Assembly: GCA_964019135.1 (NCBI GenBank)
Contig: OZ025249.1
Span: 868,001 to 932,000 of the forward strand
DNA from: Arenicola marina
Taxonomy: Eukaryota > Annelida > Polychaeta > Arenicolidae
Reading direction: 5' to 3'
Length of the DNA: 64,000 bases
In this document: piece after piece, positions 1,321-49,500 of the stretch
Layout of the letters: each line of letters begins with the position of its first letter
Position numbering within the stretch: position 1 is the stretch's first letter
Position numbers and translations under genes: made by a program
The notes under the pieces: model-generated
What the model was told of the DNA's origin: nothing
The model's database searches: none
Seen by the model: only the letters and a program-made list of their open reading frames with translations

Positions 1321-2395
1321 TCCAGCTCCCGAAGTTCCGTATCCCGAGATCTGACTATTGAAGTCTGTATCCCGAGAGCGGACCCCTGAATCCCGTATCC
1401 CGAGGGCGGACCCCTGAATCCCGTATCATGAGGGCTGACTCCTGAAGTCCGTATTCCGAGGGCGGACTCCTAAAGTCCGTATCCCGAGGGCGGACTCCTG
1501 AAGCCCGTACCCCGAGGGCGGAACCCTGAATCCCGTATCCCGAGGGCGGACCCCTGAATCCCGTATCCCGAGGGCGGACTCCTGAAGCCCGTATCCCGAG
1601 GGCGGACTCCTGAAGTCGGTATCCCGAGGGCGGACTCCTGAAGCCCGTATCCCGAGGGCGGACTCCTGAAGCCCGTATCCCGAGGGCGGACCCCTCAATC
1701 CCGTATCCCGAGGGCGGACTCCTGAAGTCGGTATCCCGAGGGCGGACTCCTGAAGTCGGTATCCCGAGGGCGGACTCCTGAAGCCCGTATCCCGAGGGCG
1801 GACTCCTGAAGCCCGTATCCCGAGGGCGGACTCCTGAAGTTTGTATCCCGAGGGCGGACTCCTGAAGCTCGTATCCCGAGGGCGGACTCCTGAATCCCGT
1901 ATCCCGAGGGCGGACTCCTGAAGTCGGTATCCCGAGAGCGGACCCCTGAATCCCGTATCCCGAGGGCGGACTCCTGAAGCCCGTATCCCGAGGGCGGACT
2001 CCTGAAGTCGGTATCCCGAGGGCGGACCCCTGAATCCCGTATCCCGAGGGCGGACCCCTGAATCCCGTATCCCGAGGGCGGACTCCTGAAGCCCGTATCC
2101 GAGGGCGGACTCCTGAATCCCGTATCCCGAGGGCGGACTCCTGAAGTCGGTATCCCGAGGGCGGACCCCTGAATCCCGTATCCCGAGGGCAGACTCCTGA
2201 ATCCCGTATCCCGAGGGCGGACTCCTGAAGTCGGTATCCCGAGGGCGGACCCCTGAATCCCGTATCCCGAGGGCGGACCCCTGAATCCCGTATCCCGAGG
2301 GCGGACTCCTGAAGCCCGTATCTCGAGGGCGGACTCCTGAAGTTTGTTTCCCGAGGGCGGACTTCTGAAACCCGTATCCCGAGGGCGGACTCCTG
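1321..2395. repeat. Minisatellite, 28-bp unit (first copy)
   Basis: Tandem 28-bp units with the core CCCGAGGGCGGACTCCTGAA and variants (AAGCCC, AAGTCGG or AATCCC in the following bases). Because 28 is not a multiple of 3 and the minus strand lacks stops, it is open in more than one minus-strand frame with a 28-residue period; these are not genes. From 1352 onward it is repeated almost base for base after the N gap. Confidence 0.95.
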
Positions 2396-3328
2396 ACCCC
2401 ACCCCCCGACACTAGCCCTCTAGCTATGTGTGTATCATAATGTGACCCCCCCCCCCTACCCGCCACCAGCCCCCTAGCTATGTGTGTATCATGGTGTGAC
2501 CCCCCCCCCGCCACCAGCCCCCTAACTATGTATGTATCATGGTGTAACCCCCCCCCCCGCCACCAGCCCCCTAACTATGTGTGTATCATGGTGTAACCCC
2601 CCCCCCGCCACCAGCCCCCTAGCTAGGTGTGTATAATGGTGTGACCCCCCCCCCCCGCCACCAGCCCTCTAGCTATGTGTGTATCTTAATGTGACCCCCC
2701 CCCCCGCCACCAGCCCCCCAGCTATGTGTGTATCATGGTGTGACCCCCCCCGCCACCAGCCCCCTAACTATGTGTGTATCATGGTGTAACCCCCCCCCCC
2801 GCCACCAGCCCCCTAGCTATGTGTGTATCATGGTGTGACCCCCCCCCCACCCGCCACCAGCCCCCTAGCTATGTGTGTAGCATGGTGTGACCCCCCGCCA
2901 CCAGCCCTCTAGCTATGTGTGTAGCATGGTGTGACCCCCCGCCACCAGCCCCCTAACTATGTGTGTATCATGGTGTAACCCCCCCCCCCCGCCACCAGCC
3001 CCCTAGCTATGTGTGTATCATGGTGTGACCCCCCCCCCCTCGCCACCAGCCCTCTAGCTATGTGTGTATCATGGTGTAACCCCCCCCCCTGCCACCAGCC
3101 CTCTAGCTATGTGTGTATCAAGATGTGCCCCCCCCCGCCACCAGCCCTCTAGCTATGTGTGTAGCATGGTGTGACCCCCCCGCCACCAGCCCCCTAGCTA
3201 TGTGTGTATCATGGTGTGACCCCCCCCCGCCACCAGCCCCCTAACTATGTGTGTATCATGGTGTAACCCCCCCCCGCCACCAGCCCCCTAGCTATGTGTG
3301 TATCATGGTGTGAGCCCCCTAGCTATGT
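2396..3328. repeat. Minisatellite, about 45-50 bp unit with poly-C tract
   Basis: Array with the core CCCCTAGCTATGTGTGTATC, then ATGGTGTGA/ATGGTGTAA and a run of 6 to 14 C. Length variation is mostly in the C run. It ends at the N gap. Confidence 0.95.
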
Positions 3329-3528
3329 NNNNNNNNNNNNNNNNNNNNNNNNNNNNNNNNNNNNNNNNNNNNNNNNNNNNNNNNNNNNNNNNNNNNNNNN
3401 NNNNNNNNNNNNNNNNNNNNNNNNNNNNNNNNNNNNNNNNNNNNNNNNNNNNNNNNNNNNNNNNNNNNNNNNNNNNNNNNNNNNNNNNNNNNNNNNNNNN
3501 NNNNNNNNNNNNNNNNNNNNNNNNNNNN
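3329..3528. other. Assembly gap, exactly 200 N
   Basis: A run of 200 N, a fixed size that points to a scaffolding placeholder rather than a measured gap. Flanking sequence is duplicated across it: 1352-about 2620 matches 3529-about 4800 at a constant offset of 2177 bp over the 28-bp array. Confidence 0.98.
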
Positions 3529-4572
3529 TGACTATTGAAGTCTGTATCCCGAGAGCGGACCCCTGAATCCCGTATCCCGAGGGCGGACCCCTGAATCCCA
3601 TATCATGAGGGCTGACTCCTGAAGTCCGTATTCCGAGGGCGGACTCCTAAAGTCCGTATCCCGAGGGCGGACTCCTGAAGCCCGTACCCCGAGGGCGGAA
3701 CCCTGAATCCCGTATCCCGAGGGCGGACCCCTGAATCCCGTATCCCGAGGGCGGACTCCTGAAGCCCGTATCCCGAGGGCGGACTCCTGAAGTCGGTATC
3801 CCGAGGGCGGACTCCTGAAGCCCGTATCCCGAGGGCGGACTCCTGAAGCCCGTATCCCGAGGGCGGACCCCTCAATCCCGTATCCCGAGGGCGGACTCCT
3901 GAAGTCGGTATCCCGAGGGCGGACTCCTGAAGTCGGTATCCCGAGGGCGGACTCCTGAAGCCCGTATCCCGAGGGCGGACTCCTGAAGCCCGTATCCCGA
4001 GGGCGGACTCCTGAAGTTTGTATCCCGAGGGCGGACTCCTGAAGCTCGTATCCCGAGGGCGGACTCCTGAATCCCGTATCCCGAGGGCGGACTCCTGAAG
4101 TCGGTATCCCGAGAGCGGACCCCTGAATCCCGTATCCCGAGGGCGGACTCCTGAAGCCCGTATCCCGAAGGCGGACTCCTGAAGTCGGTATCCCGAGGGC
4201 GGACCCCTGAATCCCGTATCCCGAGGGCGGACCCCTGAATCCCGTATCCCGAGGGCGGACTCCTGAAGCCCGTATCCGAGGGCGGACTCCTGAATCCCGT
4301 ATCCCGAGGGCGGACTCCTGAAGTCGGTATCCCGAGGGCGGACCCCTGAATCCCGTATCCCGAGGGCAGACTCCTGAATCCCGTATCCCGAGGGCGGACT
4401 CCTGAAGTCGGTATCCCGAGGGCGGACCCCTGAATCCCGTATCCCGAGGGCGGACCCCTGAATCCCGTATCCCGAGGGCGGACTCCTGAAGCCCGTATCT
4501 CGAGGGCGGACTCCTGAAGTTTGTTTCCCGAGGGCGGACTTCTGAAACCCGTATCCCGAGGGCGGACTCCTG
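3529..4572. repeat. Minisatellite, 28-bp unit (second, near-identical copy)
   Basis: Same 28-bp array as before the gap, with the same order of variant units. I saw only isolated single-base differences (for example cccatatcatg against cccgtatcatg). This is probably a duplicated contig end or a second haplotype rather than a second genomic array. Confidence 0.93.
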
Positions 4573-5445
4573 ACCCCACCCCCCGACACTAGCCCTCTAG
4601 CTATGTGTGTATCATAATGTGACCCCCCCCCCCCTACCCGCCACCAGCCCCCTAGCTATGTGTGTATCATGGTGTGACCCCCCCCCCGCCACCAGCCCCC
4701 TAACTATGTATGTATCATGGTGTAACCCCCCCCCCCGCCACCAGCCCCCTAACTATGTGTGTATCATGGTGTAACCCCCCCCCCGCCACCAGCCCCCTAG
4801 CTAGGTGTGTATCATGGTGTGACCCGCCCCCCCCCCCCGCCACCAGCCCCCTAGCTATGTGTATATCATGGTGTGACCCGCCCCCCCCGCTACCAGCCCC
4901 CTAGCTATGTGTGTATCATGGTGTGACCCGCCCCCCCCCCCGCCGCCACCAGCCCCCTAGCTATGTGTGTATCATGGTGTGACCCGCCCCCTCCCCGCCA
5001 CCAGCCCCCTAGCTATGTGTGTATCATGGTGTGACCCGCCCCCCCCTGCCACCAGCCCTCTAGCTATGTGTGTATCATGGTGTGACCCCCCCCGTCACCA
5101 GCCCCCTAGCTATGTGTGTATCATGGTGTGACCCCCCGCCACTAGCCCCCTAGCTATGTGTGTATCATGGTGTGACCCCCCGCCACTAGCCCCCTAGCTA
5201 TGTCTGTATCATGGTGTGACCCCGCCCCCACCAGCCCTCTAGCTATGTGTGTATCATGGTGTGACCCCCCGCCACTAGCCCCCTAGCTATGTGTGTATCA
5301 TGGTGTGACCCCCCGCCACTAGCCCCCTAGCTATGTCTGTATCATGGTGTGACCCCGCCCCCACCAGCCCCCTAGCTATGTGTGTATCATGGTGTGACCC
5401 GCCCCCCCCCTGCCACCAGCCCTCTAGCTATGTGTGTATAATGTT
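4573..5445. repeat. Minisatellite, about 45-50 bp unit with poly-C tract (continued)
   Basis: Same family as 2396-3328. The first few units copy the pre-gap units; beyond about 4800 the order differs, and many units carry GACCCGCCCC in place of GACCCCCCCC. Confidence 0.94.
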
Positions 5446-6190
5446 GTGTGTAATATCACGAATACCAGAGACTGAGAGAGGCAAACATCACGTCCCACTG
5501 CCTTACCCGTGGGTGTAAGTGGAGGGGGTGTGGGAGGGGGGGGGGGCGCATGGTGGGCCGATGGACAGAATGGAGGGAATCGGGGCACAACATGGTATGA
5601 TAGGGGAAATAAGGTACAGTGGCACTCACGCTGGAGGGGAACAACCGAGATGGGGGACTGGTGTGGGGGGGGGGGGGTGCTGGGCACTCTTCAATGGCTC
5701 TGCCCTGACCCACGCCCTGGTGGGTGTGGGGCACTCTTCAATGGCTCTGCCCTGACCCACGCCCTTGTCAACAATGACCCGAGACAATGTGGAACTGGAC
5801 CCCAACCCTCTTCAGGGCGGATATAAGGGGGGGGGAGGGAGGGTTACGAGGGGTGCAACTACCCCCTTGGGAACTTGAGCATATACTATCGATGTTTGGG
5901 TTCTTCGAACACCCCCCCCCCCCCACGGTCGCAAGTGTTCAGAGGGCACCCCACTGGTCGCAATGTTGGCAGAGCATCCCCATCGCCCTCCATTGCACAT
6001 TCCTAGATCGGCCCCTAGATCTGGTGGCGGAGGGGGGTGGGGGGGGGGTCTAGATCGGCCCCTGCTCATCCCCCCCTCCATTCCTAGATCGGCCCCTGCT
6101 CATGGCCCGGGATTGGAACCCTTACGTAAGGTTTCGGGTCATCTAAAAATGAAGACACGTCTGTCACTCACTGGCACAAACCAAGCACTG
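5446..6190. other. Unique, G/C-tract-rich island with short duplications
   Basis: Mostly unique sequence with several poly-G/poly-C runs. It contains a direct duplication of about 40 bp (core CTTCAATGGCTCTGCCCTGA, near 5690 and 5737) and about three copies of a block with the core TAGATCGGCCCCT (6003-6105). Short open frames exist, but none has recognisable homology or splice context. Confidence 0.5.
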
Positions 6191-11205: not shown

Positions 11206-11286
11206 AGTTTCCCGACTACTCCCTGGGGAGTTTAGACCAGTCACCAATATGTCCGGAATCACAATCTGGAGACGATGACCTTCTAG
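11206..11286 (+). CDS. COL9A1: Collagen alpha-1(IX)-like, exon A (start of NC4/TSPN domain)
   Basis: 81-nt internal exon between ttccctccag and gtaagt. It is entered with two codon bases and leaves one, so an exon ending in one codon base must lie upstream. The peptide ends SPICPESQSGDDDLL, matching the start of human NC4 (LCPKIRIGQDDLPGFDL): first conserved Cys, then an acidic stretch before GFD. In the known family this domain is the N-terminal globular head of the type IX collagen alpha-1 chain, secreted to the extracellular matrix and projecting from cartilage-type fibrils. The signal peptide exon was not found upstream. The 42-bp array ends 37 bp before the acceptor and the 44-bp array begins at the donor. 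The other frames contain stops. The gene assignment rests on all six exons together. Confidence 0.85.
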
Positions 11287-12112
11287 GTAAGTTAACCGCA
11301 TTCACCTACAACACACAAGTCACTTATTGCTAGGCAAGCCGACCGCCTTGACCAACACACCAGTCACTTACTCCTAGGTAAGCCGACCGCCTTCACCAAC
11401 ACACCAGTCACTTACTCCTAGGCAAGCCGACCGCATTGACCAACACACCAGTCACTTATTCCTAGGTAAGCTGACCGCCTTCTCCAACACACCATTCACT
11501 TATTAGGTAAGCCAACTGCCTTCACCAACACACCAGTCACTTACTCCTAGGTAAGCCGACCACCTTCACCCACACACTAGTCACTTACTTCTAGGTTAGC
11601 CGACTGCCTTCACCCACACACTAGTCACATACTTCTAGGTTAGCCGACCGCCTTCACTAACACACCAGTCACTGATTAAGTAAGCCGACTGCCTTCACCA
11701 ACGCACCAGTCACTTACTCCTAGGCTAGCCGACCGCCTTCACCGACACACCAGTCACTTACTTCTAGGTAAGCCGACTGCCTTCACCAACACACCAGTCA
11801 CTTGCTACTAGGTAAGCCGGCCGCCTTCACCAACACACCGGTCACTTATTAGGTAAGCCGACTGCCTTCACCAACACACCAGTCACTGATTCGGTAAGCC
11901 GACTGCCTTCACCAACACACCAGTCACTTACTCCCAGGTAAGCCGACAGCCTTCACCAACACACCAGTGACTTACTCCTAGGCAAGCCGACCGCCTTCAC
12001 CAACACACCAGTCACTTACTCCTAGGTAAGCCGACTGCCTTCACCAACACACCAGTCACTTATTAGGTAAGCCGACCGCCTTCACCAACACACCAGTCAC
12101 TTACTCCTAGGT
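11280..12112. repeat. Minisatellite, 44-bp unit containing the exon A 5' splice site
   Basis: About 19 units with the core CACCAACACACCAGTCACTT followed by ACTCCTAG and GTAAGCCGAC. The first unit is the exon A end itself (CTTCTAG|GTAAGTTAACC), so each unit repeats the last 4 or so exon bases plus the intron start. About a dozen units keep GTAAG; others read GCAAG or GTTAG. Use of a downstream copy would read into an in-frame TAG after about 16 codons. Confidence 0.9.
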
Positions 12113-13838: not shown

Positions 13839-13971
13839 GATTCGACTTCATCTCCCAGTATGGCTTGGATGCTGGGGCCGAAACAGAAGGAGTCAAAACC
13901 ACCAGAGGTTCCAACGAATATCAGAAGGCCTTCAGGATACGGGAACAGGCTGACCTTCGGGTCCCTACAAG
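13839..13971 (+). CDS. COL9A1: Collagen alpha-1(IX)-like, exon B (NC4/TSPN domain)
   Basis: 133-nt exon between gtttcacag and gtcagt. The last base of exon A plus GA gives the Gly codon of GFDFISQYGL, matching human GFDLISQFQV. The exon continues with NEYQKAFRIREQADLRVPTR, equivalent to human AYKLGNNVDFRIPTR. It leaves two codon bases (AG) completed by exon C. This is the first part of the laminin-G/TSPN beta sandwich. The 20-base exon end is itself the first unit of a 33-bp tandem repeat running into the intron. A second donor exactly 33 nt downstream (gt at 14005) would add 11 residues in frame, so a length variant of the protein is possible in principle. Confidence 0.9.
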
Positions 13972-14250
13972 GTCAGTCCCCACCGACCTTCGGGTCCCTA
14001 CAAGGTGACTCCCCACCGACCTTCGGCCCTACAAGGTGAGTCCCCACTGACCTTCGGGTTCCTACAAGGTGACATCCCACCGACCTTCTGGTCCCTACAA
14101 GATGACTCCCCACCGACCTTCGGGTCTCTACAAGGTAAGTCCCCACCAACCTTCTGGTCCCTACAAGGTGACTCCGCACCGACCTACGGGTCCCTACAAG
14201 GGGACTCCCCACCGTCCTTCTGGTCCCTACCAGTTGAGTTCGGGAGTATA
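13952..14250 (+). repeat. Minisatellite, 33-bp unit containing the exon B 5' splice site
   Basis: About nine units of GACCTTCGGGTCCCTACAAG plus 13 intron bases such as gtcagtccccacc. Unit 1 is the real exon end with its donor. Later units keep a usable GT at the same place (gtgact, gtgagt, gtgaca, gtaagt), while some have lost it (gatgac, ggggac). The second donor keeps the frame; using a third or later one meets an in-frame TGA. Confidence 0.92.
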
Positions 14251-24825: not shown

Positions 24826-25057
24826 GTCGATGTTCCCTCGGGAGCTGCCCGCTCGCTTCTCCTTCGTCAGCACGTTCCGGATGGCCAAGCAGACGTCCCG
24901 GGATGTGTGGGATCTGCTCCGGATCTCTGATCCGCGCGGTGACAACCAGTTCAGCGTACGTCTGGACGGCTCCACCAAGAACGTGAAGGTCTTCTACCTG
25001 GACTACGCCAACCAGCTACAGGAGGCCACCTTCCCCAGAAACAAGCGCATCAGACAG
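24826..25057 (+). CDS. COL9A1: Collagen alpha-1(IX)-like, exon C (core of NC4/TSPN domain)
   Basis: 232-nt exon between cccgcag and gtgcca. One base completes the Arg codon from exon B, then 77 codons end in phase 0. The peptide opens SMFPRELPARFSFVSTFRM, against human NLYPSGLPEEYSFLTTFRM, the most diagnostic segment of the TSPN fold. It goes on DVWDLLRISDPRGDNQFSVRL (human NIWQIQDSSGKEQVGIKI) and ends ATFPRNKRIRQ before the exon D sequence LFDKKWHK. The donor gtgcca is weak for a constitutive site. The reading frame is open throughout and codons are GC-rich, unlike flanking intron DNA. Among FACIT collagens the combination with exons E and F favours type IX over XII, XIV, XVI or XIX. Confidence 0.92.
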
Positions 25058-25187
25058 GTGCCAAACATGCTCAGCAATTTACAATAGTATCGTGAAACGT
25101 ACGCTTTAAGTATCAGCGCACGATATTAGGAAAGTAAGTTTGTGGGATTATGGCATTTCCAATGGAGTGTACATCTTGTTTGTTTGC

Positions 25188-27669
25188 CTGTTCGATAAGC
25201 AGTAGCACAAGCTACAGTCTAGCAAGCTGTATGACCGACTTATCATTGCATTTGTTCGACAAAAAGTGGCACAAGCTACAGTCTAGCATGCTGTTTGACC
25301 GACTTATCATTGCAGTTGTTCGACAAGAAGTGGCACAAGCTACAGCTGAGCATGCTGTATGACCGACTTATCATTGCAGTTGTTCGACAAGAAGTGGCAC
25401 AAGCTACAGCTGAGCATGCAGCATGACCGACTTATCATTGCAGTTGTTCGACAAGAAGTGGCACAAGCTACAGTCTAGCATGCTGTATGACCGACTTATC
25501 ATTGCAGTTGTTCGACAAGAAGTGGCACAAGCTACAGTCTAGCATGCTGTTTGACCGACTTATCATTGCAGTTGTTCGACAAGAAGTGGCACAAGCTACA
25601 GCTGAGCATGCAGCATGACCGACTTATCATTGCAGTTGTTCGACAAGAAGTGGCACAAGCTACAGCTGAGCATGCAGCATGACCGACTTATCATTGCAGT
25701 TGTTCGACAAGAAGTGGCACAAGCTACAGCTGAGCATGCAGCATGACCGACTTATCATTGCAGTTGTTCGACAAGAAGTGGCACAAGCTACAGTCTAGCA
25801 AGCTGTATGACCGACTTATCATTGCAGTTGTTCGACAAGAAGTGGCACAAGCTACAGCTGAGCATGCTGTATGACCGACTTATCATTGCAGTTGTTCGAC
25901 AAGAAGTGGCACAAGCTACAGCTGAGCATGCAGCATGACCGACTTATCATTGCAGTTGTTCGACAAGAAGTGACACAAGCTACAGTCTAGCATGCTGTAT
26001 GACCGACTTATCATTGCAGTTGTTCGACAAGAAGTGGCACAAGCTACAGCTGAGCATGCAGCATGACCGACTTATCATTGCAGTTGTTCGACAAGAAGTG
26101 GCACAAGCTACAGTCTAGCATGCTGTATGACCGACTTATCATTGCAGTTGTTCGACAAGAAGTGGCACAAGCTACAGCTGAGCATGCAGCATGACCGACT
26201 TATCATTGCAGTTGTTCAACAAGAAGTGGCACAAGCTACAGTCTAGCATGCTGTATGACCGACTTATCATTGCAGTTGTTCGACAAGAAGTGGCACAAGC
26301 TACAGCTGAGCATGCAGCATGACCGACTTATCATTGCAGTTGTTCGACAAGAAGTGGCACAAGCTACAGTCTAGCATGCTGTATGACCGACTTATCATTG
26401 CAGTTGTTCGACAAGAAGTGGCACAAGCTACAGCTGAGCATGCAGCATGACCGACTTATCATTGCAGTTGTTCGACAAGAAGTGGCACAAGCTACAGCTG
26501 AGCATGCAGCATGACCGACTTATCATTGCAGTTGTTCAATAAGAAGTGGCACAAGCTACAGTCTAGCATGCTGTATGACCGACTTATCATTGCAGTTGTT
26601 CGACAAGAAGTGGCACAAGCTACAGTCTAGCAAGCTGTATGACCGACTTATCATTGCAGTTGTTCGACAAGAAGTGGCACAAGCTACAGTCTAGCATGCT
26701 GTATGACCGACTTATCATTGCAGTTGTTCAACAAGAAGTGGCACAAGCTACAGCTGAGCATGCAGCATGACCGACTTATCATTGCAGTTGTTCGACAAGA
26801 AGTGGCACAAGCTACAGCTGAGCATGCAGCATGACCGACTTATCATTGCAGTTGTTCAACAAGAAGTGGCACAAGCTACAGTCTAGCATGCTGTATGACC
26901 GACTTATCATTGCAGTTGTTCGACAAGAAGTGGCACAAGCTACAGCTGAGCATGCAGCATGACCGACTTATCATTGCAGTTGTTCGACAAGAAGTGGCAC
27001 AAGCTACAGCTGAGCATGCAGCATGACCGACTTATCATTGCAGTTGTTCAACAAGAAGTGGCACAAGCTACAGTCTAGCATGCTGTATGACCGACTTATC
27101 ATTGCAGTTGTTCGACAAGAAGTGGCACAAGCTACAGCTGAGCATGCAGCATGACCGACTTATCATTGCAGTTGTTCGACAAGAAGTGGCACAAGCTACA
27201 GCTGAGCATGCAGCATGACCGACTTATCATTGCAGTTGTTCGACAAGAAGTGGCACAAGCTACAGTCTAGCATGCTGTATGACCGACTTATCATTGCAGT
27301 TGTTCGACAAGAAGTGGCACAAGCTACAGCTGAGCATGCTGTATGACCGACTTATCATTGCAGTTGTTCGACAAGAAGTGGCACAAGCTACAGCTGAGCA
27401 TGCAGCATGACCGACTTATCATTGCAGTTGTTCGACAAGAAGTGGCACAAGCTACAGTCTAGCATGCTGTATGACCGACTTATCATTGCAGTTGTTCGAC
27501 AAGAAGTGGCACAAGCTACAGCTGAGCATGCAGCATGACCGACTTATCATTGCAGTTGTTCGACAAGAAGTGGCACAAGCTACAGCTGAGCATGCAGCAT
27601 GACCGACTTATCATTGCAGTTGTTCGACAAGAAGTGGCACAAGCTACAGCTGAGCATGCAGCATGACCG
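25188..27669 (+). repeat. 64-bp minisatellite made of the intron C-D / exon D junction
   Basis: 39 copies at an exact 64-bp period (starts at 25188, 25252, 25316 and so on to 27620) with no net indel. Each unit is 50 exon bases beginning TTGTTCGACAAGAAGTGGCA plus 14 intron bases ACTTATCATTGCAG. The copy starting at 27620 is the functional exon D start, after which sequence changes from CGACTTATC to CGCGTGGAG. From 25316 on all 37 copies show an AG acceptor; the copy at 25252 reads GCAT and the first is degraded. Three subtypes differ around the CTGAGCATGCAGC segment (GCTGAGCATGCAGC, GTCTAGCATGCTGT, GCTGAGCATGCTGT) and alternate irregularly. Confidence 0.96.
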
Positions 27670-27787
27670 CGTGGAGCTGTACGTGGACTGTGAGAACGTG
27701 GCCGCCGCTCCCGTCCAGTCCCGAGGACCCGTCGACGTCAACGGAGATATCGTCATGGGCAAAAACCTGCAAGGGAATACCGTCAGG
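27620..27787 (+). CDS. COL9A1: Collagen alpha-1(IX)-like, exon D (NC4/TSPN domain)
   Basis: 168 nt, 56 codons, phase 0 at both ends, between attgcag and gtaggg. It opens LFDKKWHKLQLSMQHDRVEL (human LFDSQWHKIMIGVERSSATL), then YVDCENV with the second conserved Cys (human FVDCNRI), SRGPVDVNGDIVMGK (human PRGPIDIDGFAVLGK) and ends NTVR. I chose the acceptor at 27619 because it is the only one of 37 repeated acceptors that leads into the full open frame; any upstream copy shifts the frame (64 is not a multiple of 3) and meets a stop. The first 50 bases are identical to units of the intronic array, so about 16 codons of this domain lie inside a minisatellite. Confidence 0.93.
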
Positions 27788-27889
27788 GTAGGGTCATGTC
27801 GCCATGGTCACTTTACAAATACCGTGTGATACCTCATGTATCAAATATTGTAATACATTGGGGTATGTTGCAGTAAACTAATTACCGGA

Positions 27890-27908
27890 GATGGGTGACT
27901 GAATACAG
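27890..27908. repeat. Target-site duplication, left copy
   Basis: GATGGGTGACTGAATACAG, 19 bp, identical to 34191-34209. It adjoins the A-rich 3' end of the LINE. Confidence 0.95.
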
Positions 27909-30900
27909 TATTTTTTTCCCAAACGGTACATGAGTCACATTTAAAGTCATTTCATAGTATGTTTTACACACAGTAATCTTACATACATAATATAATGACC
28001 TGCTTGACAGAGCAAGCTCTCGGGGTTTCCATTTTCCCTCTACTTTTGCTTTTAATCTTGGCGATAGATGTTTTTCAAGCTCGTATGTGACTTTAATACA
28101 GGCGATGGTTCCAGAGGAACTTGGCTCGGTATCGCTATATTTACATTGGGATATATATCTTTTGACAATTATCATTATATGATTGACCAAGACAGAGGGA
28201 GTCACACTTTGATCTCCCAGTAAAACAGATTTTTTAGACAAGTTTAATCGTACACATTCCGTACTGCGGCTTAACCATCTATCTATTGCGATCCACAGCG
28301 ATCTCACACTCTCGCAGTCATAAAATAAATGCTCTAGTGTTTCGCATGACATTTTACAAAACGTACACAGATCTGTTTCGCTAAGTTTACACATAAATAA
28401 GAATTTATTGGTGGGTAATATTCTATGCAATATTTTAAATTGAAAACTTCTACTTCTCTCATTTGTAGTTGTTTTATAAGGTAGGGTGTACATACTTGTC
28501 CATTCTTCTGCATCAATTGTAGTGCTGAGCTGCTCTGACCATTTCATTTCATTATTTCTATGGTAGCTCAGCGACTCAGCAAAAATTCTATAAACCCTTT
28601 TACAAAGTAGTGGCGACTCATACAATGTTTTCATTCAAACACTTGCAACTTTTGGCATATGCGGGTCCCATTCTTTGATATTGCGTCTCCATTCGCGTGG
28701 AATACAATGAATTAAGCTGTAGAAGTCGGCAAAATTAATATTCAGACTATACTTCAAAATAAAATCTTGGAAACCCATAAAATTGCCATCTTCATTAGTT
28801 AAGTCTATTACACGCGTAACACCTTTCTCTGTGAACTCCTTCTCCCTGCAAGTTAAGTTGGAATTTGTTAAGAAATATGCATGCCATATAGGTCGATACA
28901 GATCACAATCATCTTTCAGACAGCCGGTCTGTTTTCTAAATTCTTGCCATGAGGCTACAACATGTATCCAGAAACGGTTATAGGTGGGCGCGAAGGCCTC
29001 ACTTGATTTCGAATCAAGCTCCCAGCAGGACTTATAGTTAAAACATATAGTATCTCTAAATAAACTCTGCCAAGCACCCTCCTGCGTAATCAATCTCTTT
29101 ATCCATGTTATCTTTATAGCCTTTAAAAAAGAAGTAAAGTGAGTCAGTTTGACACCCCCGCAGTTAAAGTCCTGAGCCATCCGATTTAACGTTACCTTGG
29201 GCCTTTTTCCACCCCAGATAAAAGTGCGAACAGCTTTGTTTATACGCTCGATATACGGGCGGTCAGGGTTGGGTAGAACTGATGCAACATGGATCAGCTT
29301 AGGCAAAGCCAACGTCTTAACTACCGTGACCCTACCCGTCAGAGACAACTGGCGTTTACTGTATATTCTTAAAGTATTTTCAAATTCAGCAATTTTCTGC
29401 GAATAATTTACTGTGATCATTTTATCTAGGTCGGTGTCAAAGTAAATACCTAACAATATAAAATTGCTGACCCAAGATAACTGCATTTCGTCGTGGCTTT
29501 CTCGATACCCCGTGGGGCTGAGTCCAATGTGGATAGCTTTAGTCTTTTCAATATTAATCTTCAAGCCAGAACATACATGGAACGACTCAAAAACACTCAA
29601 GGCATTTCTCATGGAGGAGTTAGTTCCATCCAGAAGCAAAAACGTCAGCATATTGACCTATCTTATACTGTTTGTGTAATACACGTATACCCTTAATGCT
29701 ATCGTCCCACTTTATGGCCATAGTGAGGGGATCAATAGCTAAAATGAACAGGTACGGGGAAAGAGAATCTCCCTGTCGACAACCTCGTCTAATGCTAAAA
29801 CAATCGGACAAAAAACCGTTATTAATGGCACGGCTGGTTGGGTCATTGTATAACACTTCGTACCATTTGATAAAAGTATCGCCGAAATTATATTCACGTA
29901 GTACCCTTGCGATATATGTCCAGCTGAGCGTATCTAACGCTTTCTCGAAGTCGATCAGAAGGATTTCCCCCGATTTTTTATTAGATATTAAGTATTGAAT
30001 GATGTCGAAAACCAGCCGAGTGTTTTCACCGATATATCTTCCCTTCAAGAAACCTTTTTGATCTGGGCTTATTATATCTACCAATATATGTTTCATACGT
30101 TTTGCTAGTATACCAGTAAACAGTTTTAGGTCTGCGTTTAATAGTGAAATTGGGCGCCAATTGCTTAAAAACTCTCTAGGTTTGTCCCCCTTTGGCAAAC
30201 ACGTAATAATTCCTTGCTTCTGCACAGTCGACAAAGAGCCAGTATGAAGGGCATATTGTATACTTTTATACATATACATATTAATATATTCCCAGAAGAA
30301 TTTGTAGCACTCTGCTGGGAAGCCGTCGCTACCCGGAGATTTATTGTTTTTCATCGATTGTAGAACTTCTGCTGTCTCATTCATACTCATATCCTTGTCA
30401 CATAACTGTCGTTGCTCTGCTGAGAGCCGTTTAATATTACGATTGGTCAAAAATTTGTCCATACATTCCCCCTGTTTAATATGGTTCGCGCTGGAGTAGA
30501 GGTTCTCATAAAATCGTTTTAGCTCTTTTAATACCTCTTCTGGTCTCACGATATCCTTCCCCTCGACATTAACCCCAGTTATCAGTTTATTTACATACTT
30601 TCTTTTCTCTAGACTGCAAATTTTTTACTGGGTTTCTCACTATCTTCGTAGAACTGAGCTTTGGATCTTAAAAAAATACCCCTAGCTTTAGGAAGCTCAA
30701 GTTTCTCGAGCTGTACTTTCAAGCCGTCGATTTCATTATCTATGTTACATGAGACAGTGCTTTGAGCTCTGTCTCTACTCTCTTCTAATGTAGCGATGTC
30801 ATTTTCTAACCATCTTTCAAGCCCATCGCACATTTTCTTTTTATGACTGCAGAATGTTATTGTTCGCCCCCGAATTTCTAATTTAATTATCTCAAACAAC

Positions 30901-31647
30901 AGTTGATCATTAATACTAAAAACTATGTTATTGCTGTCCGACGGGTTCATTTTATATTGTTCTACGACCATGCTTATAGACTGTCTCACCATCTGAGCAT
31001 ATTCCAGGTCTCTGAGCAAAGAGGTGTTAAATTTCCATACTCCCTTACCGCGCTCTGCCGCATATAATTCAATTTCAACACACAGCAGTGAGTGATCCGT
31101 CCTGTAGCCGGGTTTGATATCGGCTTTGCTTAACATAGCATTTGCATCAGTCGAAGTTAAGAAAAAATCCAGTCGTGCGCGTTGACCTTTGCGCTGCTGA
31201 TTGTTGTCCATGTATATCTACGAGTTTTAGGATGTCTAATTCTCCAACAATCTAATAGGTCCAGATTAACAGTAAACTCTGAGACTTGTCTCTTAGCTCT
31301 GACATTGTTCTCCCGTTTGTAACCTATGCAATCCAGTTTGAAATCTAAAACCATGTTCCAGTCACCGCACATGATGGTACTAGCATTATCTAATTTATTT
31401 ACTCTATCATATATATCTATATAGAACTGTGCGGAGTCGATATTCGGTCCGTAGACATTTACAAGTGTAAATCGATACCCGTTTATGCTAATATCTAAAA
31501 TAAGCAAGTTGTCCAATTTCATCTTTCTCAACTGCATGTACGCAGTGGTCAACAGTATTTTTTATAACGGTGGCCACTCCGCGTGCTTCTGAAGAGGGTA
31601 AATTGACATAGCACAAACCACCGCACTGGTCATTCAGTGCTTCATGC

Positions 31648-31829
31648 GACTACCGAAATGGACATCTTGGAGGCACCAAAATACATATCATTTTGACTAC
31701 CGAAATGGACATCTTGGAGGCACCAAAATACATATCATTTTGACTACCGAAATGGACATCTTGGAGGCACCAAAAAACATATCATTTTGACTACCGAAAT
31801 GGACATCTTGGAGGCACCAAAAAACATAT
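31648..31829. repeat. 47-bp tandem repeat (about 4 copies) inside LINE ORF2
   Basis: Starts at 31648, 31695, 31742 and 31789 with the core GACTACCGAAATGGACATCT. On the minus strand the unit encodes the endonuclease LQDVHFGS region, so the array arose inside the LINE by duplication of its own coding DNA, probably after insertion. The copies are nearly identical. Confidence 0.94.
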
Positions 31830-32043
31830 TTTTCACTTTGAGCCACTCTACAACATCCATGCGCTTAACCGAGGAACCAAGGCCTCTAACATTCATACAA
31901 CACATAGGGTGAGATATGCGATCGGAGTACCCGGCGCGGAGATTTAGAGCATGCGGACTCACTCTTTCCGCTAATAGGCGGACCAATATTAACCGAACGC
32001 AAAATCCGCGGTCCGCGTGAATGTTGCACTTGCTGCACTGCAC

Positions 32044-32986
32044 AAATTTTGAAGATCGTTAAATAGTGCCATAAAATCAATCAACGGATACGTATTGTGT
32101 TCATTATCTTATTCTCGTTGTTATAATATTATTTACAGATTTTTTGCAGGTCACAATACTACTATATATATATTAAACGTGTTGTGCGGCCTGGACGCCA
32201 TGTTAGAAATCCTCGTGATCCTCGTCTGGGTGGGGAGTAAGGTCTGGGAGTAAAATGTACCACGGGACCGCCCTATCGGACCACAATCTCCGCGTTCGCT
32301 TATGCACTCCGCGGAGTCCGACTACTCCGCTCGCATACGAACCGACGAACGGATGACCGAACTCACCCATAGATATACTCATGGTGGAAATGTAGTGAGC
32401 AATACACAGACCACTTTGACAGGTGCGTCTTTTATGACATGTACCGATATGGGGGTTGCGAAGTGTTTGTGGGGTCCAGACAACATAGCAGGTCTATGAA
32501 CTAATAGGGATTAATATAGAACTATATTAATAATAGATTGGGAATCAAAACACAGTAGAGGAAGGAGGGCAGAAGGAAGCAACAAAAAAAAGGTGGCAAA
32601 CACAAAATAGCACAAGAGCCGCTACCAGCGGTTGAGAGATCCCTGGTTAAAATTTACATGTACAACCTTCCGTTTCGTTCACGAAGGAAACGGCCGCGAA
32701 CATATGCATAATGCCTGGAGAAACTATGCATATAAACAAACACAGGCGACCATGGTTTGATTTCAACGATTGTATAGTTTCATTTACACGTCATTAAGAT
32801 TCAATACCGTTTGTATTGAGGGCACACACGGAGATGCGGAACAGTTTGAAACCGGTACAACATAAAACTGGATTACACGCAGCGCTTGAACTCATGGCTG
32901 AACTCAAATGTCATTGGGGCCACCTCAAAAACCACGTATTCCCCTGTGGTCATTGCAGCGGAGATACGTCATTGGTACACTACGTC
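32044..32986. other. Spacer between LINE ORF1 and ORF2
   Basis: About 940 bp between the ORF1 stop and the ORF2 start, longer than in mammalian L1. I see no open frame of note. There is a short inverted repeat (CCGTTTC...GAAACGG near 32670-32693). A second insertion or an internal control sequence cannot be excluded. Confidence 0.5.
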
Positions 32987-33896
32987 TCAATTGTTGGTGC
33001 TCTTGTTAGCTGCAACATTAAAAGACTCTAGCCAACTCTCTGGCAATTCGTGTACTGTATGAACATGGTATGTCTTGTTGTTTACAATCAGTCGGTTACC
33101 TAATGCTGTGGATTTTGCACCGCTTGCCCATGCCGCCTTCATCAAGGGAATAAGTCTTCTCTTCTCATCTTGGATGTGCTAGGGGAAGTCTTCTTCAATA
33201 AATATTGAAGTCCCTCGCAGATGTTTCTTGTGGTTCCAGACCTTCTGCCTGTCGTCGAAGTATGCAAAGCGCACGATGATGGGCCGCGGCTTTCGGTGAG
33301 GCGCCCCCTGTCGTCGACTTCTGACCCAGACGATGACAGCGTTGCAGACGTATGTCGCCAGCGTTCTCGATTCCGAGCTTGGCTTTGATGGTTTCCTTGA
33401 CGACCGCAGCACTATCTTCTTTATCCCACGCCGACTCTGCGATCCCATGGATGACAAGGTTCTCCCTCCTGCCGTATGCCTCAAGGGCTGTCATTTTTTT
33501 CTTTAAATCTTCGTTTTCAAATTTGAGGCTTTCCAGAGTCTGGACTGGATATTGCCGTTCGAATTTTATTAGTTTTTGTTTCAAGGTCTCGTTTTCTTTT
33601 TCAAGCTTATCCACCCTGTCACTGGTTAAGTGGGCGAGGTCCTTTATGGAATGTAGTTCTTCTTTCATAATACGGATATCTTCCTGCATCTGGGGCAGGC
33701 AAGACACCTTCTGCAGAATTTCGGCCAGCATGGGTTGTTGGTTTTTAGCGGTCGCCATCTCTTCTGATGCGTTAATCTTAGTACTAGTATCCACTGATGT
33801 CGTCTCAGTCCAGGTTAGCAGAGTTCCTTGCTTCTTGTCCTCCGGTTTATCCTGTTTCGCACCGCTACTGTTTCGCCGTCTCTTAGATTTCCCCAT
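32987..33896 (-). pseudogene. LINE ORF1: coiled-coil RNA-binding protein, degraded
   Basis: Chosen start MGKSKRRRNSSGAK at 33896: basic N-terminus, and upstream codons look like 5' UTR. Residues about 57-142 are a heptad-rich coiled coil (LTSDRVDKLEKENETLKQKL). Then comes the L1 ORF1-type RRM segment with RRENLVIHGIAE and RLQRCHRLGQ, and a C-terminal domain with RPIIVRFAYFDDRQKVW and MKAAWASGAKSTALGNRLIV. In L1-type elements this protein trimerises and coats the element RNA. One frameshift near 33305 and one in-frame TAG after IEEDFP (about 33180) break it. The stop is at 32987-32989. Confidence 0.9.
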
Positions 33897-34136
33897 GATC
33901 CATTTTGAGACAGCCCCCGGAAGAGCCGGTGAATTCAAGCGACTTCCCGTGTCCCGACAACGTTGAAGTTTCCTCGGAGTATCTTGCTTTATACCAGCGG
34001 CACTCCCTTGAAACTTTACATGTGGAATCTCTAGTACGTAGTATCTCATGTTAATCCTTGGCTCAACATATCGATCTAAGTGTCTTTAACCTGCGAGGGA
34101 TCTCCACGTTGGTAGATCACGTCCACCTCGCAGCGG

Positions 34137-38379: not shown

Positions 38380-38732
38380 CTGACTCCATCATGCCATACC
38401 GAGCCAGCCTCCATCATGCCATAAAGAGCCAGTATCCATCATGTCATACCGAGCCAGTCTCCATCATGTCATACCGAGCCAGCCTCCCTCATGCCACACC
38501 GAGCCATTATCCATCATATCATACCGAGCCAGTATCCATCATGTCATAGAGAGCCAGTCTCCATCATGTCATACCGCGCCAGTCTCGACCTTGGCATACT
38601 GAGCCAGCCTCCATCATACCATACAGAGCCAGTCTCCATTATGTCATACAGAGCCAGTCTCCGTCATGTCATACCGAGCCAATCTCCATCATGTTATACC
38701 GAGTCATTTTCTATCATGTCATACAGAGCCAG
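38380..38732. repeat. Minisatellite, 25-bp unit (left part, split by a LINE)
   Basis: About 14 copies with the core ATACCGAGCCAGTCTCCATC. The same array resumes at 40893 after the inserted LINE. Confidence 0.94.
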
Positions 38733-40892
38733 ATTCAGATTCAGATTCAAAATCATTTATTCGTCAAAGCGATAATATTTAATACATAGATGATCATAGA
38801 TGAAAGATAAACATCACTTTAACACAGGAGACTCAGACTAAGGTTGAACACCGCTCTCGTCTGAGCCACCTGGAGTTGTTGTAACATAGACGAATGATAT
38901 AACTGGAACTCAAACAGTGAGAAAAGCACGAGATTTTCTATTATATGTTACTTACAAATTGGGAGTTGTGAGAGGGCTGACGTTGGGGGTGGGGCGGGGA
39001 GGGGGGGGGGGGCGGGCGGGCGCGGGGGAGCGGTCGCGGTGGAGGGGAGGGGCGAGGCGGAGGGGCTAGTTTTATTTCTGACATGTATGGCAATTCAAAA
39101 GACTACAATGGTCAGAATAATTGCTTATGATATTATCTTTGATATACTTTGAGAATCCTATCAGGCTGTGCGTATTGATCTTATCTAAAATTATTGCAGG
39201 TTCGGTATTTACAATTTCAATTAGGCAATGTCTAATGCATTTCTTCGCATAATCATGGTAAACTCTACTTGTATGAGCATAATCCTTATATCTTGTATTA
39301 TGTGAGTGTATTTCGTAGGCACGTGTTATGGGGATCTGTGAGAAGTACGTGGGGAGATTATTATTTTTTAATTTATGATAGAACTTTAATTTTTGTAAAC
39401 GGTGAATATCTTCCAGTTTTAGTAGGTTTAGCTGTTTGAAAAGGGGCTCGCTGTGAGCCTTAAAATTGCTCAGCGATATAATTCTTACTGCCCTTTTCTG
39501 TAGTTTATATATTCGTTCTCCACAGTAACCCCAAGCTAGTATGCCGTAGTTTATGTACGGGAGAATGAGGGAATTGTATATAGTTAAAAGTATTTGGGCA
39601 GAGTATATTTGAGTCTATTCAATATTCCCAGGACCTTTGAGATTTTAATGCAGATCTTGTCAACATGACTATGCCACTTCATATTCTTGGTAATTGTGAA
39701 ACCCAGCATGTTGAATTCATCTACGCATTCAACTTTTACATCATTTATTACAATATCTGGCAACTGCAGTTTCTTGCCAGGCATATGGAAGACCATGAAT
39801 TTACTCTTACTAGGATTTAATGACAGTCTACTGGCATTTAACCATTTGCTTATATTACTTAGTTCATCGTTTAATAAGGCACTGGAGGATGCTGATGTAT
39901 CAGTTTGTACTGGGCTTAAGGTACCTATCAGAGTAGTGTCATCTGCATACAATATAAAATGAAAGTAGTCGCTGGCCGACGTGATATCATTCATGTAAAT
40001 GATAAAAAGAAGCGGACCCAGTATTGAACCTTGGGGGACTCTTGTTGTTAAATGGGCCAACTCGGAGCCATAGTTATCAATTTCAACATATTGTTTACGA
40101 TTCGGTTAAATAATTCTTTAGCACTTCTAGAGCCATGTCACGTATGCCATAATGGCTCAATTTATAAATCAATATTTTGTGATCTATTGTGTCAAAGGCT
40201 TTAGATAGGTCTAGGAAAATATTGAACGGAGTTTTTCCATTATCCATATATTGCATAGTTCGATCAATTAGTTCAAGATTAGCTAATTCTGTAGAATGTT
40301 TTAATCTAAATCCGTATTGACTATTATTGAAGAGATTATGTTGCTGGAAGTGTTTAAGAATTTGATTTGCTAATGCCTTTTCAAATACCTTGGATATTGC
40401 TGGTAATAATGATATTGGTCTATAGTTGTTGAATGAAGTTACGTCACCATTTTTATAAACGGGAGTTACTTTGGCTATCTTTAACTTATCAGGAAAAGTC
40501 CCAGTTGTGAGTGTTTGATTAATTATCAGCGATAAGGTTCGAGTTAATTCTGGCTTAATCACTTTGAGAAGTTTAACCGAGATGCCGTCACGACCACAGC
40601 TGGGTTTGGGTTTCAGTTTATCAATTATATCTCCTATTTCGTTTGGATCGGTTAACGTAAATTGCAAGGTATCTGGGCTTGGGTTTTTTAAGTATGCCTT
40701 AAACTGGTCACCTGAGTTAGTAAGTTCTTCAGCAAGGTTGGGACCAATATTAGCAAAAAAATCATTAAATTTAGTGGCTATGTCTTGCTTATCAGAGATT
40801 GTTCTGCCATCTACCTTAAATATACCTAGGCCATTCCCTTTTGTCTTTTTGCGATTTAACACCTCTGTAAGTGCTGCCCAAGTTTGCTTGGT
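38733..40892 (-). mobile_element. CR1/Jockey-type LINE, 5'-truncated, inserted in a minisatellite
   Basis: About 2.16 kb on the minus strand. The 3' end is AATAAATGATTTTGAATCTG with a short TGAATC repeat, typical of CR1/L2/Jockey-group tails rather than poly-A. The 5' end is truncated between endonuclease and reverse transcriptase (begins near TKQTWAALTEVLNRKK). Both flanks are the same 25-bp array, so insertion came after the array existed. A target duplication (perhaps AGCCAG) cannot be told from the repeat itself. The exact clade is not determined. Confidence 0.9.
39072..40892 (-). pseudogene. Reverse transcriptase ORF of the CR1/Jockey-type LINE, degraded
   Basis: Order on the minus strand: linker KFNDFFANIGPNLAEEL; CGRDGISVKLLK; VTPVYKNGDVTSFNNYRPIS; SQYGFRLKHSTELA; IFLDLSKAFDTIDHKILIYK; VPQGSILGPLLFIIYMND; intact FILYADDTTLIG; WLNASRLSLNPSKSKFM; and a C-terminal region with LPYINYGILAWGYCGERIYK ending CHTCQK at a TAA (39072-39074). 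DLSKAFDTIDH and YADD are typical of the CR1/L2/Jockey group. Two frameshifts (near 40108 and 39587) break it. The 5' part with the endonuclease is absent. The 3' UTR (38733-39071) holds a long C-rich tract on the element strand. Confidence 0.92.
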
Positions 40893-41275
40893 AGCCAGTA
40901 TTTATCATGTCATACAGAGCCAGCCTCCATGATGCCATACCGAGCCAGTCGCCATCATGTCATACCGAGCCAGTCAACATCATGTCATACCGAGCCAGTC
41001 GCCATCATGTCATACAGAGCCAAACTCTATCATGCCATACAGAGCCAGAATCCATCATGTCATACCGAGCCAGTCTCCTTCATGTTATACCGAGTCATTT
41101 TCCATCATGTCATACAGAGCCAGTACTTATCATGTCATACCGAGCCAGTCTCCATCATGTCATACCGAGCCAGTCTCCATCAGGCCATACAGAGCCAGTC
41201 TCCATCAGGCCATACAGAGCCAGTCTCCATCAGGCCATACCGAGCCAGTCTCCATCAGGCCATACAGAGCCATGC
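40893..41275. repeat. Minisatellite, 25-bp unit (right part)
   Basis: About 15 copies with the core ATACCGAGCCAGTCTCCATC, continuing the array split by the LINE. The last units have ATCAGGCCATAC in place of ATCATGTCATAC. Confidence 0.94.
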
Positions 41276-41639: not shown

Positions 41640-41711
41640 TTCGACCTACAGTGGCTCATGCTGCATTGTGACCCGACCAAGCCACAACGCGAAACCTGTG
41701 ATGAGATACCG
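41640..41711 (+). CDS. COL9A1: Collagen alpha-1(IX)-like, exon E (end of NC4/TSPN domain)
   Basis: 72 nt, 24 codons, phase 0 at both ends, between cttgcag and gtcagt. The peptide begins FDLQWLMLHCDPTKPQRETC and ends DEIP, against human [23 protein letters not shown]: the closest match in the window and the basis for choosing collagen IX alpha-1. It holds the third and fourth NC4 cysteines (HCDP, ETC), which in the human domain pair with the two upstream ones. It closes the globular domain. The 28-bp array begins about 10 bases after the donor. Confidence 0.95.
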
Positions 41712-46478: not shown

Positions 46479-46526
46479 CTGACGACCTCACGTCCCGTGA
46501 CGCCGACCAGGTCCACGTACGTGGAG
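46479..46526 (+). CDS. COL9A1: Collagen alpha-1(IX)-like, exon F (linker to first triple helix)
   Basis: 48 nt, 16 codons, phase 0 at both ends, between cattgcag and gtaagt: LTTSRPVTPTRSTYVE. Length, phase and position agree with the human linker ARITPSQTTDE that joins NC4 to the first Gly-X-Y helix (VTPTRST against ITPSQTT). The match is short, so the call rests on phase 0, good splice sites and order. No Gly-X-Y exon follows before the window ends, because the next intron is at least 17 kb of 40-bp repeats. The exon end GTGGAG and donor look like the ancestor of the repeat's TGGAGATAGGTC. Confidence 0.72.
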
Positions 46527-49500
46527 GTAAGTACATACCACCAGCTGTAGGCAAACACTGGAGATAGGTCTGACATACCGCCATGTGTAGTTAAACACTG
46601 GAGATAGGTCTGACACACCACCAGCTGTAGGCAAACACTGGAGATAGGTCTGACACACCACCAGCTGTAGGCAAACACTGGAGATAGGTCTGACACACGG
46701 CCAGCTGTAGGTAAACACTGGAGATAGCTCTGACACACAGCCGGCTGTAGGCAAACACTGGAGATAGGTCTGACACACGGCCAGCTGTAGGTAAACACTG
46801 GAGATAGGTCTGACACACGGCCAGCTGTAGACAAACACTGGAGATAGGTCTGACACACAGCCGGCTGTAGGCAAACACTGGAGATAGGTCTGACATACCG
46901 CCAGGTGTAGATAAACACTGGAGATAGGTCTGACACACCACCACCTGTAGGCAAACACTGGAGATAGGTCTGACACACCACCAGCTGTAGGCAAACACTG
47001 GAGATAGGTCTGACACACGGCCAGCTGTAGGCAAACCCTGGAGATAGGTCTGACACACCACCAGCTGTGGATAAACACTGGAGATAGGTCTGACACACAG
47101 CCAGCTGTAGGCAAACACTGGAGAGAGGTCTGACACACGGCCAGCTGTAGGTAGATACTGGAGATAGGTCTGACACACGGCCAGCTGTAGGTAACACTGG
47201 AGATAGGTCTGACACACCGCCAGCTGTAGTTAAACCTTGGAGATAGGTCTGACACACCGCCAGCTGTGGATAAACACTGGAGATAGCTCTGACACACGGC
47301 CATCTGTAGGCAAACACTGGAGATAGGTCTGACACACGGCCAGCTGTAGGTAGATACTGGAGATAGATCTGACACACGGTCAGCTGTAGGTAAACACTGG
47401 AGATAGGTCTGACACACCGCCAGCTGTAGTTAAACACTGGAGATAGGTCTGACACACGACCAGCTGTAGGTAAACATTGGAGATAGGTCTGACACACGGC
47501 CAGCGGTAGTTAAACACTGGAGATAGGTCTGACATACGGCCAGCTGTAGTTAAACACTGGAGATAGGTCTGACACACGGCCAGCTGTAGGTAAACAGTGG
47601 AGATAGGTCTGACACACGGCCAGCTGTAGTTAAACACTGGAGATAGGTCTGACACACCGCCAGCTGTAGTTAAACACTGGCGATAGGTCTGACACACCGC
47701 CAGCTGTAGGCAAACACTAGAGATAGGTCTGACACACGGCCAGCTGTAGTTAAGCACTGGAGATAGGTCTGACACACGGCCAGCTGTAGGCAAATACTGG
47801 AGCTAGGTCTGACACGCCGCCAGCTGTAGTTAAACACTGGAGATAGGTCTGACGCACGGCCAGCTGCAGGTAAACACTGGAGATAGGTCTCACACACGGC
47901 CAGCTGTAGGCAAACACTGGAGATAGGTCTGACACACCACCAGCTGTAAGCAAACACTGGAGATAGGTCTGACACACGGCCAGCTGTAGGTAAACACTGG
48001 AGATAGGTCTGACACGGCCACCTGTAGGCAAACACTGGAGATAGGTCTGACACACGACCAGCTGTAGTTAAACACTGGAGATAGGTCTGACGCACCGCCA
48101 GCTGTAGTTAAACACTGGAGATAGGTCTGACACACGGCCAGCTGTAGGTAGATACTGGAGATAGGTCTGACACATGGCCAGCTGTAGGTAAACACTGGAG
48201 ATAGGTCTGACACACGGCCAGCTGTAGTTAAACACTGGAGATAGGTCTGACCCACCGCCAGCTGTAGTTAAACACTGGAGATAGGTCTGACACACGGCCA
48301 GCTGTAGGTAGATACTGGAGATAGGTCTGACACATGGCCAGCTGTAGGTAAACACTGGAGATAGGTCTGACACACGGCCAGCTGTAGTTAAACACTAGAA
48401 ATAGGTCTGACACACCACCAGCTGTAGGCAAACACTGGAGATGGGTCTGACACACGACCAGCTGTAGTTAAACACTGGAGATAGGTCTCACACACGGCGA
48501 GCTGTAGTTAAACACTGGAGATAGGTCTCACACACCGCCAGCTGTAGTTAAACACTGGAGATATGTCTGACACACGGCCAGCTGTAGGTAAACACTGGAG
48601 ATAGGTCTGACACACGGCCCGCTGTAGTTAAACACTGCAGATAAGTCTGACACACCGCCAGCTGTAGTTAAACACTGGAGATAGGTCTGAAACACAGCCA
48701 GCTGTAGGCAAGCATTGGAGATAGGTTTGACACACCGCCAGTTGTAGGCAAACACTGAGATAGGTCTGAGACACGGCCAGCTGTAGGCAAACCCTGGAGA
48801 TAGGTCTGACACACCACCAGCTGTGGATAAACGCTGGAGATAGGTCTGACACACAGCCAGCTGTAGGCAAACACTGGAGATAGGTCTGACACACGGCCAG
48901 CTGTAGGTAGATACTGGACATAGGTCTGACACACGGCCAGCTGTAGTTAAGCACTGGAGATAGGTCTGACACACGGCCAGCTGTAGGCAAACACTGGAGA
49001 TAGGTCTGACACACCACCAGCTGTAGGCAAACACTGGAGATAGGTCTGACACATCATCAGCCGTAGGCAAACACTGGAGATAGGTCTGACACACCACCAG
49101 CTGTAGGCAAACACTGGAGATAGGTCTGACACACGGCCAGCTGTAGGTAAACACTGGAGATAGGTCTCACACACGGCCAGCTGTATGCAAACACTGAGAT
49201 AGGTCTGACACACGGCCAGCTGCAGTTAAACACTGTAGACAGGTCTGACACACGGCCAGCTGTAAGCAAACACTGGAGATAGGTCTGACACACAGCCAGC
49301 TGTAGGCAAGCACTGGAGATAGGTCTGACACACCGCCAGTTGCAGGCAAACACTGAGATAGGTCTGACACACGGCCAGCTGTAGGCAAACACTGGAGATA
49401 GGTCTGACACACGGCCAGCTGTAGGTAGATACTGGAGATAGGTCTGACACACGGCCAGCTGTAGGTAAACACTGGAGATAGGTCTGAAACACCGCCAGCT

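What the first reader, a model, noticed from the sequence alone, without database searches (positions are those of the whole stretch)
25188..27787. 37 identical 3' splice acceptors in tandem before exon D
The 64-bp unit is 14 intron bases plus 50 exon bases, 39 copies, perfectly phased with no net indel over 2.4 kb. Every acceptor is the same ATTGCAG|TTGTTC, yet only the last yields an open frame. The sequence just upstream of the true acceptor is a copy of exon DNA, so branch point and pyrimidine tract must lie in exon-derived sequence. Selection must come from what follows (exon D enhancers, donor proximity) rather than from the acceptor itself.
Basis: partly seen in the sequence, partly recalled or inferred. 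Interest (0 to 1): 0.88.

Follow-up and report, generated by a model that had tools for sequence, protein, structure and literature searches.

The report
Amphioxus-type mirage minisatellite at an acceptor
A piece of DNA that spans the end of an intron and the start of an exon in a cartilage-collagen-like gene has been copied about 38 times in a row, so that dozens of identical splice signals precede the one that makes sense; this kind of repeat is already described from lancelets, but this one is unusually long and clean.

Summary
Observation confirmed. From 25189 to 27669 a 64-bp unit (14 intron + 50 exon bases) repeats 38.8 times. There are 38 full junction copies exactly 64 nt apart: 37 read ATTGCAG|TTGTTC, the first is dead (ATTGCAT). 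Spliced from the exon ending at 25057, only the last acceptor (27620) gives an open frame; the 37 other phases stop within 108 nt. The gene resembles collagen alpha-1(IX), NC4 domain (PDB 2UUR, E=3.2e-55).

It is not a new kind of thing. It fits the "mirage": a minisatellite made of a tandemly duplicated intron-exon boundary, described in amphioxus globin, Adh3, PGBD5 and troponin C genes and reported there not to disturb splicing. Three more boundaries of the same gene start donor-side arrays (exons A, B, F). Organism and splicing were not observed.

What stands out: 37 identical acceptors, five decoys matching the true one over at least -85..+50, which makes a natural test of how position decides splice choice. 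Likely mechanism: the last acceptor pairs across the exon with the nearby donor, and mis-spliced RNAs, which carry early stops, are removed.

The parts
25189..27669 (+). 64-bp acceptor mirage array, 38.8 copies, last unit running 50 nt into exon D
27620..27787 (+). Exon D (168 nt, phase 0/0); its first 50 nt are the last unit of the array
   Evidence: predicted, no RNA
25252..25315 (+). Unit 1, preceded by the dead junction CATTGCAT
25170..25203 (+). Left edge: the six best pyrimidine-rich 20-nt windows of the C-D intron start at 25170-25177; then CAG|TAG at 25203
24826..25057 (+). Exon C, donor CAG|GTGCCA
11206..11286 (+). Exon A; its donor is unit 1 of a 44-bp array (TRF 11309-12112)
   Evidence: six sequences aligned
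13839..13971 (+). Exon B
13952..14237 (+). 33-bp donor mirage of exon B: 20 exon + 13 intron nt, 8.7 copies
41640..41711 (+). Exon E
46479..46526 (+). Exon F; its donor is unit 1 of the 40-bp array that runs to the window end
   Evidence: five sequences aligned

Best explanation
The array is a mirage minisatellite: a 64-bp segment straddling the 3' splice site of exon D in a COL9A1-like gene, probably of an amphioxus, was multiplied by unequal exchange or slippage. Only unit 38 is read as exon. The last acceptor is used because both flanking introns are long (2.6 and 13.9 kb), so splice sites are paired across the exon: the acceptor nearest the donor at 27787 gives a 168-nt exon, the ones before it 232, 296, 360 nt and more. 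RNAs that use an earlier acceptor meet a stop at once and are expected to be removed by nonsense-mediated decay. The array is therefore tolerated and homogenises almost freely while selection holds the last copy. Shown: repeat anatomy, frames, identity of the sites, gene resemblance. Inferred: organism, use of 27620, exon definition, decay, origin by exchange.
For: Anatomy and phase. Six predicted exons join into 244 aa without a stop that match human collagen alpha-1(IX) NC4, 2UUR, E=3.2e-55. 37 of 37 other phases stop within 108 nt, so at least 123 nt before the end of exon D. Precedent: globin BflGb6 has the same make-up (3' intron end + 5' exon part) with 6 and 3 units, and RT-PCR suggested regular splicing (passages); PGBD5, with Adh and troponin C cited (passages). 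Human transcriptome data and 5'-site minigenes support pairing of the sites closest across the exon when introns are long (abstract, passages and one section). In vitro, globin substrates with duplicated 3' sites spliced, very inefficiently, only to the distal site (passage). The left-edge units carry changes not shared with most of the array, as expected of array turnover.
Against: No RNA was seen. In the human study, competing 3' sites under exon definition showed a significantly reduced upstream preference, not a stated reversal; Reed and Maniatis found the upstream 3' site chosen (as told). The best-scoring acceptor of the intron is at the left edge, not 27620 (0.85 against 0.61). The host was identified by no call.
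Confidence: 0.75

Rival explanations
1. Choice among the acceptors is loose or favours upstream sites; only decay of RNAs with early stops makes the 27620 product dominate. The array costs the gene output.
For: 37 of 37 other phases carry stops far from the end of exon D; upstream preference of competing 3' sites in the human data taken together.
Against: Published RT-PCR on other mirages suggested regular splicing, though decay was not said to be blocked in the passages seen; with 36 live upstream decoys most RNA would be wasted (inference).
Confidence: 0.3
2. Exon D enhancers beyond +50 mark the true acceptor.
For: Decoy 37 and the true site are identical over -85..+50 and differ only from +51 downstream and beyond -85 upstream.
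Against: No enhancer was tested; the same difference is explained by donor proximity.
Confidence: 0.2
3. The array length is an assembly artefact (expanded or partly collapsed).
For: Two 200-N gaps in the window, one between matching pairs of arrays; a published globin mirage was wrongly assembled in a draft genome (legend passage).
Against: Ten distinct units interspersed in exact phase; no gap in the array.
Confidence: 0.1
4. Exon D is skipped or the gene is a pseudogene.
For: Exon D is 168 nt, so skipping keeps the frame.
Against: Exon D aligns through the NC4 domain of 2UUR and the six exons give one open frame.
Confidence: 0.05

Closest known systems
Mirage in amphioxus globin gene BflGb6 (Ebner et al. 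2010, PMC3087553; passages seen)
   Same: Tandem copies of intron 3' end plus exon 5' part, splice signals in many copies, homogenised inside and divergent at the boundary units
   Different: 150-160 bp units, 6 and 3 copies; here 64 bp and 38 full copies in exact phase
Mirages of amphioxus Adh3 (Canestro et al. 2002; not held, known here only as cited)
   Same: Boundary repeats of 10-72 bp, somatic instability reported, regular splicing reported
   Different: Different gene; copy numbers not seen
Lancelet PGBD5 tandem repeats over splice sites (PMC3902484; passages seen)
   Same: 60- and 108-bp repeats that include exon boundaries
   Different: 2 or 7 and 3 or 6 imperfect copies, depending on the source
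Human internal tandem repeats at exon-intron boundaries (PMC2812944; passages seen)
   Same: Minisatellite at an exon-intron boundary that affects splicing
   Different: On average 30-bp units repeated 4 times; linked to formation of novel introns

Membership tests
Amphioxus mirage minisatellite | Tandem repeat whose unit spans an exon-intron boundary | tested here: met
   14 intron + 50 exon nt, 38 full copies
Amphioxus mirage minisatellite | One end copy is the authentic boundary | tested here: met
   Unit 38 is the only open-frame boundary; prediction, no RNA
Amphioxus mirage minisatellite | Many copies keep AG or GT | tested here: met
   37 of 38 keep AG
Amphioxus mirage minisatellite | Homogenised interior, boundary units left out | tested here: met
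   10 distinct units among 38; left-edge units 0 and 1 carry private changes; judged by eye, no tree built
Amphioxus mirage minisatellite | Does not disturb regular splicing | not testable with these tools
   No RNA held
Amphioxus mirage minisatellite | Length polymorphism or somatic instability | not testable with these tools
   No second haplotype; whole genome not held
Amphioxus mirage minisatellite | Host is a cephalochordate | tested here: inconclusive
   Inferred from the mirages and an animal collagen gene; a 32-nt exact unit pattern had 0 matches in viral and in prokaryote contigs, collections that hold no animal genomes
Collagen alpha-1(IX), NC4 domain | Sequence match to the NC4 domain | tested here: met
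   2UUR is the only distinct PDB sequence at E<=0.001, E=3.2e-55, residues 11-237 of 244; Pfam Laminin_G_2 below its cut-off, 21.2 against 22.9 bits
Collagen alpha-1(IX), NC4 domain | Gly-X-Y collagen exons downstream | not tested
   The window ends inside the array that follows exon F

The most novel reading that the evidence does not exclude
The array is a length-variable splicing rheostat and a template bank for the exon. More identical decoy acceptors give more unproductive RNA, so copy number, perhaps varying between somatic cells as reported for the Adh locus, sets collagen IX dose. Exchange between array units and unit 38 could also rewrite coding sequence: 15 of 38 units carry TCT for CTG and CTG/TAT or TTT for CAG/CAT, 11 of them changing L-S-M-Q-H to S-S-M-L-Y in the domain.
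Probability: 0.1. Interest if true: 0.75.

Novelty: new member of a known kind. Interest (0 to 1): 0.45.

Why it matters
Splice-site choice is usually studied with two competing sites. Here 37 acceptors with the same core, several with the same wide surroundings, differ in position, so one RNA experiment could separate pairing across the exon, use of the first site made, and decay of faulty RNA. It also shows coding sequence (the first 50 nt of exon D) living as the end unit of a homogenising minisatellite, in a gene where 4 of the 12 predicted exon boundaries in the window start such arrays.

Tried and rejected
RNA structure that hides the decoys: the last four units (256 nt) fold no better than shuffles, z=0.31, 113 of 200 shuffles at least as good. 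A three-unit higher-order repeat: lag-3 identity 7 of 12 in units 24-38 (shuffle p=0.03) but 10 of 35 over all 38 units (p=0.51); five lags in three ranges were tried, so not claimed. Selection on the 14 intron bases: one variable position against 11 in the exon part, too few independent events; not claimed. Arrays seeking exon edges: with 75% of the window in arrays, boundaries inside TRF arrays 2 of 12 against 0.60 expected (p=0.11), within 25 nt 4 of 12 against 0.92 (p=0.01); the list of 23 arrays was merged by hand. The 12+12-nt boundary test on 12 boundaries found only B donor (7 hits) and D acceptor (37 hits); A and F donors did not pass because they share only about 4-5 exon nt with their units, and they rest on alignments of five or six sequences each. 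Loss of the leftmost acceptors by selection: only two units, unit 0 aligned by eye; cannot be told from edge decay.

Papers: nine answered searches. 'mirror minisatellite' and 'mirage minisatellites' found none. Passages of the amphioxus VCBP paper (PMC2632668) mention partial exons with splice sites in introns; those of the huntingtin paper (PMC2206037) no mirage; those of a lamprey col9a1 paper (PMC10161429) nothing on this.

Full report
What is there. Between 25189 and 27669 a 64-bp unit repeats 38.8 times. The junction motif CATTGCA occurs 38 times with all 37 spacings exactly 64 nt. In each full unit 14 bases equal the last intron bases before exon D and 50 bases correspond to the first 50 of exon D. 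37 of 38 copies keep AG; the first reads CATTGCAT. Ten distinct units occur among the 38; two main forms, CTGAGCATGCAGCATG (20 units) and TCTAGCATGCTGTATG (11 units), are intermixed with 7 units of three other forms.

The gene. Six exons can be read on the + strand: A 11206-11286, B 13839-13971, C 24826-25057, D 27620-27787, E 41640-41711, F 46479-46526, all bounded by AG and GT, one open frame of 244 aa. Exon positions are predictions. The product has one match among distinct PDB sequences at E<=0.001: collagen alpha-1(IX), 2UUR, E=3.2e-55. Pfam gives two laminin-G-type models below their cut-offs. The start of exon D, LFDKKWHK, aligns with LFDSQWHK there, so exon D belongs in the protein.

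Frames. Joining 25057 to any of the other 37 phases gives a stop 15, 72, 96 or 108 nt after the junction; only 27620 is open. The stop lies at least 123 nt before the end of exon D, the usual setting for nonsense-mediated decay (general knowledge; not tested in this animal).

The sites are equal. Units 8, 20, 28, 31 and 37 match the true site over at least -85..+50, unit 7 over -84..+50. In a rough recalled matrix all 37 live copies score 0.61; exons A, B, C and E score 7.02, 2.37, 5.75 and 6.01, exon F -1.42, so D is weak but not the weakest. Of 269 AGs scored, the top one is 25203 (0.85), where the most pyrimidine-rich windows of the intron (starting 25170-25177) meet a CAG that opens on TAG. 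That tract lies where the ancestral 3' end of the intron would be expected, and the junctions of units 0 (aligned by eye) and 1 beside it lack AG. This may be mere edge decay.

What it is. Ebner et al. [quoted passage not shown] A PGBD5 paper reports similar repeats and cites Adh and troponin C (passages). The array fits on each feature that I could test from sequence, except that the host is inferred. The same gene adds more: exon B's donor is repeated in 33-bp units (20 exon + 13 intron nt; TRF 8.7 copies), and the introns after exons A and F begin directly with unit 1 of a 44-bp and a 40-bp array. For exon A the 17 later donor-like phases tested (14 with GT, 3 with GC) give a stop. For exon B the second donor (14004) gives an open +33 nt product and the four later donors tested give stops.

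How it likely works. Local sequence cannot mark the true site, so position or later quality control must. In human data, with long flanking introns, sites closest across the exon tend to be selected (PMC9225289). The last acceptor gives a 168-nt exon, the ones before it 232, 296 and 360 nt. Against this, the same study reports for 3' sites a reduced upstream preference under exon definition, not a stated reversal, and classical work found the upstream 3' site chosen (as told). A substrate with duplicated globin 3' sites spliced inefficiently but only to the distal site (PMC5389562, passage). I therefore leave a sizeable share to loose choice followed by decay.

Novelty. New member of a known kind. 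In the passages I saw, mirages have 2 to 7 units; 38 in exact phase is far more. I did not see the Adh3 paper or any genome-wide survey, and nine answered searches of an open-licence library do not prove that no such array is in print.

Limits. Organism inferred; no RNA; no second haplotype; own genome not held; two 200-N gaps in the window.

Noticed in passing
13952-14237: Exon B donor mirage: the second donor (14004) would add 11 in-frame residues without a stop; the four later donors tested read into a stop.
   Followed up: partly
46522-64000: 40-bp array (TRF 437 copies from 46533) starts at exon F's donor and runs to the window end; GTAGGTAAAC, donor-like, occurs 117 times in it.
   Followed up: partly
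38384-38732 and 40893-41272: Two arrays with the same 25-bp unit flank a stretch with reverse-transcriptase-like ORFs on the minus strand (39072-40901, judged by eye), as if an element had inserted into one array.
   Followed up: no
1337-5448: Arrays of a 28-bp and then a 44-49-bp unit occur in the same order on both sides of a 200-N gap at 3329-3528: a real or an assembly duplication.
   Followed up: no
27882-34085 (-): Retrotransposon-like ORFs in the intron after exon D: zf-RVT (E=8.5e-8) and RVT_1 (E=8e-19) in two pieces; a 296-aa ORF at 33195-34085 was not searched.
   Followed up: partly
window 1-64000: About 75% of the window lies in minisatellite arrays with periods of 12 to 64 bp (list merged by hand).
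   Followed up: no
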